A stretch of DNA of 64,000 nt, taken from assembly GCF_042242105.1 (NCBI RefSeq), contig NC_092016.1, positions 11,918,501 through 11,982,500 on the forward strand, given 5' to 3'. The notes beneath the pieces are model-generated. The model did no database searches and was not told the DNA's origin. It saw only the letters and a list, made by a program, of their open reading frames with translations. Each line of letters begins with the position of its first letter. Position 1 is the stretch's first letter. Origin of the DNA: Pempheris klunzingeri. Lineage: Eukaryota > Chordata > Actinopteri > Acropomatiformes > Pempheridae. This document shows, one piece after another, positions 25,482 through 34,900 of the stretch. Made by a program: the position numbers and the translations under genes.

Positions 25482-28400
25482 ATGGTGAGAAATTACAGTC
25501 ATACTATCAGTAACGCGCTATATCACATGTGGAGTTTATCTTATTGGTTGTACTTTACAAATAGGACGGTACTTTCTGTCGCAGGGAAGCTTAAATCAAG
25601 ATTTATTAGATCTGAAAGTTGGAAAGCTCCAGGCTAGCGAAGCTAACACGAGGAGCCATTTTGGATGAGCAGCTTCAACCAAGTTACACGTGTGGCTTCC
25701 TCCTCAGTGGTGGATCACTAACGAGCAGGCAGCAGACAACGTTTATTTAGATGGGTTATCTATATAGCCCTCTTCTCGCGGCATTTGCGTCTATTTATAT
25801 TGGTAAAAGCTTGAACGCCATCTGTAATGAGTGGCGAAGGTAAAGTTTAAGTGGTATGCTAAGTCACGTTAGCAGAATCAACCAGCGCTTAGGCCATCAG
25901 AGGCGGATTTCTCGGTGAAATTGTTTAAAAACGGGACGTTTACGAGCAATCCCTGCTGTTAGTGGGGTGCACTTGACAATACTAGTTCCACCGAGTTGCT
26001 TCAGACTGACAGTAAAGTTAGCAGTGTGACTACACGCACATGTTTGGAGATATGTCTATTTTATTTTTAAGAATTCATGTTTTTCCTTAAAGAGCCTCTG
26101 CATCGTACAGACTATGCATTACACTCTTAAAACCAACATTTTGCACCCGTCTGAAGCTCATTGTTCATTTCTCTTCCTAGGCCTGTGCCCGACCCCTGAT
26201 CTCGGTTTACTCCGAGAAAGGAGAATCCTCAGGCAAGAATGTTGTCATGCCTGCTGTGTTCAAGGCTCCGATTCGCCCTGATGTTGTGAATTTTGTTCAC
26301 ACCAACATGCGCAAGAACAGCCGCCAGCCCTATGCTGTCAGCGAACTGGCAGGTGAGTGGACATGCCTGTCTTGACCCGGCATATTGATCAAAGTACAGC
26401 CTTTTGTAACCTTGTCACAAATCTGATGCATTCTGTCTAATTGTTTGTTAAAGGTCACCAGACCAGTGCAGAGTCTTGGGGTACAGGAAGAGCTGTGGCC
26501 CGTATCCCTCGTGTGAGAGGTGGTGGTACTCACCGCTCTGGCCAGGGTGCTTTTGGCAATGTATCCTTTTGACCACAATTGAAGCTTTAAATTTTTGTCT
26601 CCCTTTTTTTTATAATGCCGCAAAGGCAAACTAAAACCAAAAGACTTGCAGTGATGGTGTAATTTGCGTCCGACTCTGTAACCAGTGACAGAATGCCTAC
26701 TGTCATATGCTGGCACAGATGACTGACGACCATTGAGTCTGAGCAGGCACGGTATTGGGCACTAAGGTACTGTTAAATTTAGTAGTTGTCAAACCTCCTT
26801 GACTTTGATCTAGATGTGTCGCGGAGGTCGCATGTTTGCCCCCACCAAAACCTGGCGTCGCTGGCACCGCAGGATCAACACAACTCAGAAGCGTTATGCC
26901 ATCTGCTCTGCTGTGGCTGCCTCTGCCATTCCTGCTCTTGTGATGTCTAAAGGTAAGCTCTCAAAACAATTTTGTTACAGAATCCAAATAATACTGGTAT
27001 ATGGTCTTAGAAATCTATATTCTGCTCAGTTTTTAAAGAGCAGCTTAACATCTAACTTGCCATGATGGTGTAATTTGCGTCTGATCCTGTGAACAGTGAC
27101 AGTTGCCTGCTGTCTTTAAGCTGTCACAAGGTATTGATGTGTGTTGAGTTCTGAGCAAGCTCTGGTAGCCTTTAACAGTCACAAGGTGTGTGTGGGCATC
27201 TGTGGTTGACATAATGGTCTTGTCTGTCAGGTCACCGCATTGAGGAAATCCCTGAGGTTCCACTAGTGGTTGAAGACAAAGTTGAGGGCTACAAGAAGAC
27301 CAAGGAGGCGGTGCTCCTGCTGAAGAAGCTTAAAGCCTGGAATGACATCAAGAAGGTAATTTTTACTATTTGTCACATTTTCTCTCAGCTTGAATTAGGG
27401 AACGCATGATTCAAATTTAATCATCTATTATGACTTTAAAGTTCTGATTTTAGCTTGAGTGATGTTTAGTGTTTATATCCATATTGAATGAAGAGTATAG
27501 AAATCAAAGGTATATTGGAATAACAAAGCTCCTCCCCTCAGGTCTATGCCTCTCAGCGCATGCGTGCTGGTAAGGGTAAAATGAGGAATCGCAGAAGGAT
27601 CCAACGCAGAGGACCATGCATCATCTACAACCAAGACGCTGGTGTCACCAAAGCTTTCAGAAATATCCCAGGTGTGTTATTTGTTGAAATGTGGATGTGC
27701 AACAGTGACAGTTGCCTGCTGTCACAAGGTATTGATGTGTGCTGAATTCTGAACAAGCTCTGGTAGCCTTAAACAGTCACAAGATCTTTGTGGATCTTTG
27801 GATATCTATGTTGGACATGGTAAATGGTAATCAGACTACTATTAGTCTTTGTATTGAATATTTAACAATGAATAGTCCTTGTGCAGTGGGTATTGGAATC
27901 TTAAATGAAAATGGGAATTGGGTAGTGTGGTGGCCTACACAGTAAAACAGTGGGAATGAGAAGCTGTCATTACACAGGTCTATATTTACACAGGTGTAGA
28001 ATGACTCCATCTTGCATGTTAATTTCTGAATCTTGTTGCATCTGTGAAGGTAAACATTGACTTTTAATAGAAGCAACAAGACGACTTCAAGTGTTTAACA
28101 ATTCTGTTGTATTATGAAGGCATCACTCTGCAGAATGTGAACAAACTGAACCTCCTGAGACTTGCCCCTGGTGGTCATGTCGGACGCTTCTGCATCTGGA
28201 CTGAGAGTGCTTTCAGAAAGCTGGACGAGCTGTACGGCACCTGGCGTAAACCTGCTTCCCTGAAGGTTGACTACAAGTGAGTATACAAGGAGCATCATAG
28301 TGTAGCACAAGTAAAACTGGTGTTTGCAGTTTACAGTGATGAGCTTCCACTTCATGGTCCGTGTTTTTGAAACTCTGTGATATTTAAAGAAGTTCTGAGT

Positions 28401-31914: not shown

Positions 31915-34900
31915 TCACATCGCTGTGCCGTGGGTGGGTGTCACAGGCTGATTGAGTCCAATGGTGCTGCACAACCAGCCAGCAAAGTCGACCTGCTCTG
32001 CCTCAGACTGTTTGATAAAGGGATGCACCTGAAGAAAAGGAAAGGTGTGTGAGACTGCTGAAGAGATGGGGAAAAATGTGCTAAAAATGTTGACTCACAA
32101 TCAACTGTTTCAGGTCTGCTCTCTCTGCTGGATTCTTTATCAAACTGCAATGGAGAAGAAAGCAAATTGTAGTGGAATTCAATGCCACTGGGTGGCGTAA
32201 AGTTTGACGGACAGTCTAATCATTGATTATCAGTAAATATTACAGACATGACATACATACATACCACTTATTCACAAAGTCTTGAAATTCAGAGCTAAAT
32301 ATCCCGGGTAGCTTCGGTGGAGGCTGCAAATTTAAAAGTTCAGTCAGTCATTTGGTCAAATTTAACATGATCACATTGGTGGCAAAGATCTCACTACAAC
32401 ATACACCAGTATGCAGGTGTGTGGGCATGCAGTGAGCACACTCACCTCATTTACTATGTAATCTAGCAGCTCAAATATAGCCATTGGTGGTCTGCTGTCA
32501 GGTCCGTATGCTGGGAGGAGGTAAAAAAAAAATAGTCAGATAATTTGGTGTGTTCTTTGCACTAATCATTCACGGTCATCAGTAGATGTCAGCTCATGAC
32601 AATGCTGTGATTGAGTTATTGTGGTAAACAATTTCAACAGACCTTTTTTCAAACAGTTTCAGTCAAAGCTGTGGTAACGTAAAAAGGCCACTCTAAACAA
32701 CCACAGGATGAATCAGTGTCATCTCACACTTACAGCTGCCTGGTCGCCCAGGAGGCCGTGGCTTTGGGGAGGACTCGCTGGACGCTGCCTCCCCTTCCAC
32801 TGGGAAGCCAAAAATCTGCTCCAGTTCCTTTGCATCAGGCGGTGGGATAGGGAAGCGTCCAATGGCCATTTCAACTAGGGAGAGACCCATACTCCAGATG
32901 TCCGACTGAACAGAGTAATGGGTGCCCTGTAAACGCTCCGGCTGCACAACAAAACATGCAATTATACCACTAATACAACCATTACTGATTTGTACAATAA
33001 TAGTATAGCATAATTAAAACAGCAATGAGCGAAAAGCTTAGGTTTCAGACAAGCTCTAACTTAATAATACCTTATATTAATACAAATGACTGTAGGTTGA
33101 GGATTTAGAAGTTTCTTTAGTTTTTGGTGAAGCAGCATAAATTTAGAGCTCCACATTACATCATGTAGACTGTGCCTACATGTTGGGACTACGTTTAACA
33201 CAGTTGATGCTGAAAACATGGAGCCTCTGTATAGAGCTAGTCCCAGTTGATTGAGTCACTGGAAATTTTAACTGAGCTGGGGACTGTGGTTGCTTCTCAC
33301 ATATAAATCTGACACTGATCTCAGTTGTGTCAGGAATCCTAAAAGCTAATATGTGAATGTGAGCTGCAGGAAAGGAGGAGCCTGTCAATTATAACTCACA
33401 GACATGTAAGAGCGAGTGCCCACGAAGGAGTTGGCCATGGAGTCTATGAGCTGTCCGCTCACTCCGAAGTCACACAGCTTGATCTCACCACGGGAATTTA
33501 CCAGGATGTTAGAGGGTTTGACATCTGAAAGAGGGACATGCAGTATTTAAGAGAACATGGTGGGTAAGTGTTCGACAGGGAACAGTGAGCGCCACAGAAC
33601 AAACTGCTGCAAAGCCTCTGTGCATGTTGTGTTGCTTGTTGCGTGCTTGTCTGATTTAACATTTCCTTTCATCATTCATATGTACAACACTGAGTGCAAC
33701 AAAGATGCAGTCTATGCTGGTTAACCAGGGTCTTTGAATGTTTTGCATCCTTTAAGAATATATTCTATTCGTTGCATATTTTAGTAAATAAGATAGTCAT
33801 TGACCTCTGTGCATGATCTTGTGTTTCTCCCTCAGGTAAGTGAGCCCTTTAATGACCTGGAAAGATAAACAATGCATATTGGTGTAAGAATTCAGATAAT
33901 GTGGTAGTGCAAAAGAAACAACAGTTTTACATCCAAAAACAAAACAAAAATAGCTGCAGTGTGACGACCAGAACACAAAACTGGTGGGAGAGGTGTTGGA
34001 GCTACCCACAGCAATGCTGACTTTGCCAAGGATCTGCTCAGGGATCTTGCCTGCCTTCTTCAGGGACTGGTCCAGGGAGCCACCGTCCTACACCCAGCAG
34101 GGAAAGAAAATATGGAGAGCATCTACTGAAAGGAGTCCTGACAATCCAAAGTATCACTTATGAAATTAAATTATCTGAACAAAATCAGTTTCGATGAGGT
34201 TGCACATAGAAGTAAAAACATGACACTTCCAGCACGGTCCATATACAGTGCAGCGCTCTAAGTGAATGCTGTGTAAATTCTCTGACAGCTGCAACGTATT
34301 GAAGATAAGTACCATATGCTCCATGCAGATGCTGATCTCTCCATCGCTGTAGAAAGCTCCATAGAAGCCCACAATGTAGGGGGAGTTACACTCATGCAGC
34401 ACCTGCAGCTCCCGAATGATCTGGTTCCTAATGGCTGGTTTGATCTCCAGGTGGATCAGCTGCAACACAGGAGACTTCACGTTTGATTTATGTTCTCATA
34501 TCAAACAGAACACACACTGGAACAGCCGTCGTGCAATATGTCATGATCAACAAATGTTTTAATATAGGCGCACATTTCAGTTAGTATTTCAGTCATTTGA
34601 CAGCATTGTGTGCATATTGTAGCTTTTGTTGTTATGTTGTTGACTCAACGCTCTCTGTAAACAGTGATGATGTCTGTCAAAGTCAATGCCTGCCTGACAT
34701 ACTGAAGAAGACAAGCTCTACCTATAACCAGCCAAATCGGTGCTGCAGCTTCCTCACCTTCCTCGCCATTATCAGTCCAGAAGGTCTGTGGGAGACCTTG
34801 AAGACAACTCCTCCGTTGCCTGCGCCCAGCTCACAGATCTTCTCAAAGTCATCGTCCTTCAGCTCCCCCACCTTCTGCTTCTGTGTCAGGAAGGCCTCCA

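What the first reader, a model, noticed from the sequence alone, without database searches (positions are those of the whole stretch)
27290..32323. Direct tandem duplication spanning the 3' ends of two convergent genes
A unit of about 2.5 kb, from rpl4 exon 5 to the ninth coding exon of map2k1, is present twice in direct order. The working rpl4 is completed by copy 1 and the working map2k1 by copy 2, so both genes survived while the middle became two nested 3' pseudogenes. Such an event keeps both genes alive only because they converge.
Basis: seen in the sequence. Interest (0 to 1): 0.75.

Follow-up and report, generated by a model that had tools for sequence, protein, structure and literature searches.

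The report
Old tandem duplication, partly re-copied recently
In what looks like a fish genome, a 2.5-kb stretch covering the facing tails of two genes was duplicated long ago without breaking either gene, and about 0.8 kb of the dead copy was apparently overwritten later with the living gene's sequence; the arrangement resembles one known from a human disease locus.

Summary
27284-29790 (rpl4 exon 5 to inside map2k1 exon 9) and 29788-32318 are direct tandem copies. The working rpl4 (25482-29036, 369 aa) ends in copy 1 and the working map2k1 (minus strand, 40911-31915, 395 aa) in copy 2. The two fragments at the joint are 5'-truncated and back to back, not nested.

Copies differ at 12 of 809 aligned sites in 28271-29087/30715-31526 but at 320 of 1260 elsewhere; for non-coding sites K2P is 0.026 against 0.36. 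Best reading: an old duplication whose rpl4 3' segment was later overwritten by non-allelic gene conversion, rpl4 to pseudogene. That segment holds two SNORD18 genes; the resulting four copies (two identical pairs) are all that a capped genome search found.

The claim that both genes survive only because they converge is wrong: any direct tandem duplication with one breakpoint in each of two genes preserves both. The closest known case is the human RCCX module (STK19B/TNXA junction). New member of a known kind; expression, polymorphism and related fish were not testable.

The parts
25482..29036 (+). working rpl4 CDS, 10 coding exons (25482-25484, 26181-26352, 26454-26560, 26814-26952, 27231-27355, 27542-27671, 28120-28276, 28485-28568, 28754-28874, 28965-29036), 369 aa, no internal stop
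   Evidence: spliced and translated; phmmer 7oya_C1 'Ribosomal protein L4' 6.9e-219 over 1-366; Pfam PF00573 and PF14374
31915..40911 (-). working map2k1 CDS, 11 coding exons (last three 32323-32265, 32144-32099, 32028-31915), 395 aa, no internal stop
   Evidence: spliced and translated; phmmer to MAP2K1 chains, best 1.3e-238; PF00069
27284..29790 (+). copy 1 of the duplicated unit (left end within rpl4 exon 5; right end is the map2k1 exon 9 relic)
29788..32318 (+). copy 2 of the duplicated unit (left end is the rpl4 exon 5 relic; right end within working map2k1 exon 9)
29785..29795 (.). new joint: map2k1 exon 9 (minus) fused to rpl4 exon 5 (plus); GGCT is shared by both parents and the joint, within GAGGCT/GAGGGCT, so possible microhomology of 4 (up to 6) bases
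   Evidence: sequences printed; both sides have diverged since, so tentative
28271..29087 (+). donor side of the low-divergence tract in working rpl4: last bases of exon 7, introns 7-9, exons 8-10, AATAAA at 29068. Left edge uncertain: the best-fitting segment begins at 28137, because 35 of 36 aligned exon 7 sites (28208-28243) also match
   Evidence: 12/809 differences inside, 320/1260 outside; best segment 28137-29087 13/855 against 319/1214, 2dlnL 290 against a maximum of 21.4 in 200 shuffles
30715..31526 (+). recipient side of the tract in the rpl4 fragment, AATAAA at 31507
29795..31473 (+). 5'-truncated rpl4 fragment: exon 5 relic with in-frame TAG (29795-29860), decayed exon 6, exon 7 with large deletions, exon 8 open (30930-31013), exon 9 with an 8-base deletion between 31291 and 31292 (frameshift), exon 10 open (31402-31473)
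29415..29790 (-). 5'-truncated map2k1 fragment: relics of exons 9, 10, 11; stops in the exon 11 frames, exon 9 donor lost, no TTTATT (AATAAA on this strand) in 29030-29440
28331..28402 (+). SNORD18 in working rpl4 intron 7
   Evidence: Rfam RF00093, 67.9 bits
28614..28680 (+). SNORD18 in working rpl4 intron 8
   Evidence: RF00093, 56.1 bits
30776..30847 (+). SNORD18 in copy 2, identical to 28331-28402
   Evidence: RF00093, 67.9 bits; identity checked
31059..31125 (+). SNORD18 in copy 2, identical to 28614-28680
   Evidence: RF00093, 56.1 bits; identity checked
31575..31580 (-). likely poly(A) signal of working map2k1 (TTTATT on +), 63 bases above the end of the rpl4-fragment AATAAA (31507-31512); suggests that the two 3' ends nearly abutted in the ancestor
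   Evidence: use of the signal is not tested

Best explanation
An ancestral chromosome had rpl4 (+) and map2k1 (-) tail to tail with nearly abutting 3' ends (inferred from the signals in copy 2). One direct tandem duplication of about 2.5 kb had its left break in rpl4 exon 5 and its right break in map2k1 exon 9, joined with at most a few bases of microhomology. The joint fused two promoterless 3' pieces head to head and left both outer genes continuous, so the event was probably close to neutral (inferred). The middle then decayed by stops, deletions, a lost splice site and copy-specific stretches (shown). Much later, about 0.8 kb (from exon 7 to just past the rpl4 poly(A) signal) of the rpl4 fragment was overwritten from working rpl4 by non-allelic gene conversion (inferred from the tract), which also refreshed two SNORD18 genes. 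Within 28271-29087 the copies now differ by 12 substitutions and 3 indels, one an 8-base frameshift in the fragment (shown).
For: Direct copies in one order with one joint. Two matching places in the assembly for each piece searched. Both outer genes intact; fragments broken. Tract: 12/809 against 320/1260 differences; best segment 2dlnL 290 against at most 21.4 in 200 shuffles (a first run with slightly misplaced exon 7 blocks gave 276 against 22 in 40). Not explained by exon or snoRNA constraint: non-coding sites alone 10/395 against 234/831, Fisher 2.6e-32, K2P 0.026 (bootstrap 0.013-0.042) against 0.36 (0.28-0.45); with only well-aligned outside windows 0.26, still a 10-fold ratio. Direction: outside the tract the rpl4 fragment has a stop and a decayed exon 6, while working rpl4 is clean; a decayed donor would probably have broken rpl4 (inference).
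Against: No outgroup fish was available, so ancestral states, age and direction are not tested on a tree. Flanks now about 75% identical are poor substrates for conversion (recalled rule of thumb), so the tract was probably kept similar by earlier exchanges, or made by two unequal crossovers. At about 0.8 kb it is longer than the 14-450 base maximum tracts reported for human LTR elements (PMC4921805, passages). The left edge is uncertain by over 100 bases. No reads were available to exclude an assembly or polishing error that homogenised the tract.
Confidence: 0.83

Rival explanations
1. The tract arose by two successive unequal crossovers (array expanded to three units, then contracted), not by a conversion patch.
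For: Gives the same two-copy mosaic; the 0.8-kb length is no obstacle; RCCX arrays occur with one, two or three units and show both unequal crossover and conversion (PMC8362596, passages).
Against: Needs two events; the pieces searched in the assembly matched two places only.
Confidence: 0.13
2. Selection, not exchange: copy 2 of the tract is functional (SNORD18 and/or an alternative rpl4 3' end) and slowly evolving.
For: 0 of 139 SNORD18 sites differ; the tract pair holds all 4 SNORD18 matches of the genome search (60 of 123000 candidates scored).
Against: Non-snoRNA intron sites in the tract are also 97% identical (10/344 differ), while rpl4 introns to the left of it differ at 82/328; exon 9 of copy 2 is frameshifted. 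At the tract-wide rate about 2 differences would be expected in 139 sites, so zero says little.
Confidence: 0.04
3. Assembly artefact: two haplotypes laid side by side, or a polishing step that homogenised part of one copy.
For: No reads could be inspected; the assembly has 439 contigs.
Against: About 25% divergence outside the tract, copy-specific stretches and a joint inside exons are not haplotype differences; each outer gene is complete only once.
Confidence: 0.03

Closest known systems
Human RCCX module (MHC class III: STK19-C4-CYP21-TNX; STK19B/TNXA junction)
   Same: Tandem duplication with breaks in two different genes; the joint holds the 3' end of the left gene (STK19B, 914 bases) next to a truncated copy of the right gene (TNXA), and TNX lies on the opposite strand to C4 and CYP21; live genes and pseudogenes recombine by unequal crossover and gene conversion (PMC8362596, passages; PMC2718876, passages).
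   Different: Different locus, no homology claimed; smaller (2.5 kb here; 30-kb deletions are cited there); no complete passenger protein gene, only intronic SNORD18; far more diverged outside the tract (CYP21 copies are 96-98% identical); copy-number polymorphism unknown here.
Tandem duplications with breakpoints inside genes in Drosophila yakuba and simulans
   Same: Same mutation class, breaks inside genes (PMC4503668, passages).
   Different: [quoted passage not shown] here the joint makes two promoterless 3' pieces and no chimera.
snoRNA copies in RPL4 introns (SNORD16/SNORD18)
   Same: Chicken RPL4 hosts U16 in introns 1 and 3 and U18 in introns 2, 5 and 6 (PMC2653536, passages); here SNORD16 lies in rpl4 introns 3 and 4 and SNORD18 in introns 7 and 8.
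   Different: Here extra SNORD18 copies come with a duplication of the host gene's 3' end rather than from copying between introns.

Membership tests
Direct tandem (segmental) duplication | two adjacent copies in the same orientation with one new joint | tested here: met
Unprocessed (duplicated) pseudogene, 5'-truncated | introns retained, 5' end missing, disabling lesions | tested here: met
   introns present, stops, frameshift, lost splice site
Unprocessed (duplicated) pseudogene, 5'-truncated | not expressed | not testable with these tools
   no RNA data
Non-allelic gene conversion tract | bounded stretch of high identity between paralogues inside diverged flanks, also at neutral sites | tested here: met
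   right edge sharp, left edge uncertain (28137-28271)
Non-allelic gene conversion tract | recipient shares derived states with donor against an outgroup | not testable with these tools
   no fish relative held: G000 has no relatives here; the one scan of genome contigs gave 1 locus, in a bacterial record
RCCX-type module (works like) | joint of two 3' gene fragments, both outer genes intact | tested here: met
RCCX-type module (works like) | complete passenger genes inside the unit | tested here: not met
   the unit lies within the 3' parts of rpl4 and map2k1; Rfam adds two intronic SNORD18 per copy
RCCX-type module (works like) | copy number polymorphic by unequal crossing over | not testable with these tools
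   one assembly only

The most novel reading that the evidence does not exclude
The duplicated rpl4 tail is kept alive by repeated exchange because it carries SNORD18 genes, the only ones that the genome search found: a host-gene tail without a promoter acts as a reserve snoRNA cassette fed by rpl4 read-through, while also moving apart the poly(A) ends of two nearly abutting convergent genes by about 2.5 kb.
Probability: 0.06. Interest if true: 0.6.

Novelty: new member of a known kind. Interest (0 to 1): 0.35.

Why it matters
It is a compact, old natural example of a rule that is easy to get wrong: a tandem duplication whose ends fall in two genes breaks neither, whatever their direction. It also shows a ribosomal protein gene beside a frameshifted partner with which it has apparently exchanged sequence, so exchange in the reverse direction, or unequal crossover to the left of the 8-base deletion, could break rpl4, as is described for CYP21A1P and CYP21A2. 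The diverged flanks and the young tract give two clocks at one locus, testable in related fish.

Tried and rejected
Rejected: 'two nested pseudogenes' (they lie back to back); 'only because they converge' (geometry); uniform age of the duplication; exon or snoRNA constraint as the cause of the tract.

Led nowhere: fish relatives (none held: says G000 has no relatives here; the scan of genome contigs with Rpl4 had 67 pattern matches and 1 confirmed locus, L008, 54% identical, in a record titled Desulfosporosinus MAG). Origin of the copy-2 stretch: 30025-30275 matched only itself in the assembly. The same search with the copy-1 stretch (27672-27975) did not complete. A Pfam scan of a 31-residue neighbour fragment gave 0 families, and the search for Pfam PF09817 in the assembly did not complete, so the neighbour's name is recalled only. 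Literature: 0 papers of the held library hold rpl4, map2k1 and teleost or rpl4, map2k1 and synteny; others (2 papers listed; 1 listed) showed none on this arrangement at a ribosomal protein gene. Absence from print is claimed only for these searches.

Limits and mends: the global alignment misplaced exon 6. The first anchored blocks overlapped by a few copy-2 bases and forced about 8 misaligned exon 7 columns, giving 12/807 and 329/1273; one search mends this (12/809 and 320/1260). The non-coding counts use the blocks; the faulty columns lie in exon 7 and do not enter them. Blocks leave out copy 1 27506-27537, 27711-27966, 28147-28207 and 28244-28270 and copy 2 30017-30265, 30412-30497 and 30709-30714. 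The shuffles ignore autocorrelation, so the non-coding contrast is the main test. The outside K2P of 0.36 includes poorly aligned map2k1 introns; 0.26 is the conservative figure. One search scored 60 of 123000 candidates, so four SNORD18 copies is a lower bound.
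Full report
OBSERVATION. Self-comparison of the window shows direct matches between 27.28-29.57 kb and 29.79-32.07 kb in one order, the largest 1371 columns at 86.7% identity. Global alignment carries the match to both ends: left at about 27284-27290 inside rpl4 exon 5, right at about 32316-32318 inside map2k1 exon 9, new joint at about 29788-29793. In the 646-Mb assembly (window at G000:C5:11918501-11982500) a 1299-base piece of copy 1 matches two places, itself and copy 2, and a 691-base piece of the map2k1 side likewise.

GENES. rpl4 splices into a 369-residue protein with GT/AG borders; best match is the L4 chain of PDB 7oya, 6.9e-219 (that 7oya is zebrafish is recalled). 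The genome search with this protein gave 11 matches, all in this window: 8 in the working gene and 3 in the copy-2 fragment. map2k1 splices into 395 residues, matching solved MAP2K1 chains at 1.3e-238. In the genome its protein has 81 matches (105 of 403 candidates scored), many of them weak and to other kinases; the most similar elsewhere are exon sets on C6 and C15, mostly 71-98% identical, probably map2k2 paralogues (recalled, not tested).

THE DEAD MIDDLE. On the plus strand the rpl4 fragment starts in exon 5 (in-frame TAG) and has a decayed exon 6, an exon 7 with large deletions, an open exon 8, an exon 9 with an 8-base deletion and frameshift, and an open exon 10. On the minus strand the map2k1 fragment has relics of exons 9, 10 and 11, a lost exon 9 donor, stops in the exon 11 frames, and no AATAAA left on its strand in 29030-29440. 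The fragments meet only at the joint and run away from each other: not nested. The joint and both parents share GGCT within GAGGCT/GAGGGCT, compatible with microhomology joining, but both sides have since diverged.

MOSAIC AGE. With the mended blocks 2069 sites align with 332 differences: 12/809 in 28271-29087 (against 30715-31526) and 320/1260 elsewhere. The best-fitting low-divergence segment is 28137-29087 with 13/855 against 319/1214, 2dlnL 290 against a maximum of 21.4 in 200 shuffles. The right edge is sharp. The left edge is not: exon 7 matches at 35 of 36 sites between two deletions in copy 2, so the tract may begin in exon 7 and the deletions may be later. Restricted to sites outside exons and SNORD18: 10/395 inside and 234/831 outside, Fisher 2.6e-32, K2P 0.026 and 0.36; bootstrap intervals 0.013-0.042 and 0.28-0.45; leaving out poorly aligned windows the outside value is 0.26. 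So the tract is roughly 10 to 14 times younger than the duplication, without any clock. A stickleback synonymous rate of 7.1e-9 per site per year (PMC4046692, passages), taken as per lineage, turns 0.36 and 0.026 into about 25 and 1.8 My; that paper's UTR rate of 2.7e-9 gives about 67 and 4.8 My. These are rough: the species is unknown, and whether the paper's rates are per lineage was not checked.

DIRECTION AND MECHANISM (inferred). Working rpl4 is intact through the tract, while the fragment left of it is decayed; copying from a decayed donor would probably have broken rpl4. So rpl4 was most likely the donor. Today's flanks are too different to pair easily (recalled rule of thumb), so the tract was probably exchanged more than once, the last time recently. 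At about 0.8 kb it is longer than the 14-450 base maximum tracts given for human LTR elements (PMC4921805, passages).

WHY BOTH GENES LIVE. A direct tandem duplication creates one new joint and leaves both outer joins untouched; the left gene runs on into copy 1 and the right gene comes out of copy 2. This holds in every orientation. Orientation decides only what the joint makes: two promoterless 3' pieces for convergent genes, a chimera for same-direction genes, two promoter-bearing 5' pieces for divergent ones.

SNORD18. Rfam finds SNORD18 in rpl4 introns 7 and 8 and in the matching places of copy 2, with equal scores; both pairs are identical. The genome search found these four and no other, scoring 60 of 123000 candidates. 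Whether copy 2 is transcribed is unknown. Identity is explained by the recent exchange, so it is no evidence of function.

CLOSEST KNOWN. The human RCCX module has the same anatomy: STK19B keeps 914 bases of the 3' end of STK19, TNXA is a truncated copy of TNXB on the strand opposite to C4 and CYP21, and unequal crossover and conversion act between copies (PMC8362596, passages; PMC2718876, passages). This locus works like that module but lacks complete passenger genes, and is not related to it by descent. By analogy (inference), exchange in the wrong direction here could carry the 8-base deletion into rpl4.

VERDICT. Known kind of event; modest interest.

Noticed in passing
window 27697-27793: rpl4 intron 6 holds a partial third SNORD16-like sequence: 27718-27793 is 91% identical to 27120-27195, but nothing here reached E 0.1 against Rfam. 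The self-BLAST shows no counterpart in copy 2, so it was inserted in copy 1 or lost from copy 2.
   Followed up: partly
window 26647-26745 and 27058-27157: Two SNORD16 genes in rpl4 introns 3 and 4; chicken RPL4 has U16 in introns 1 and 3.
   Followed up: partly
window 30017-30265: Stretch of copy 2 without a counterpart in copy 1; 30025-30275 has no other match in the assembly.
   Followed up: yes
window 24417-24880, minus strand: A divergent gene seems to start about 0.6 kb upstream of the rpl4 start codon; by recall it looks like zwilch, a neighbour of human RPL4; not confirmed (Pfam gave 0 families for a 31-residue piece).
   Followed up: partly
L008 5001-5978: A record titled Desulfosporosinus MAG holds an L4 reading 54% identical to this Rpl4 over residues 16-339; perhaps a eukaryotic contig binned with a bacterium.
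   Followed up: no
window 56216-56298: Perfect AT repeat of 41.5 units.
   Followed up: no
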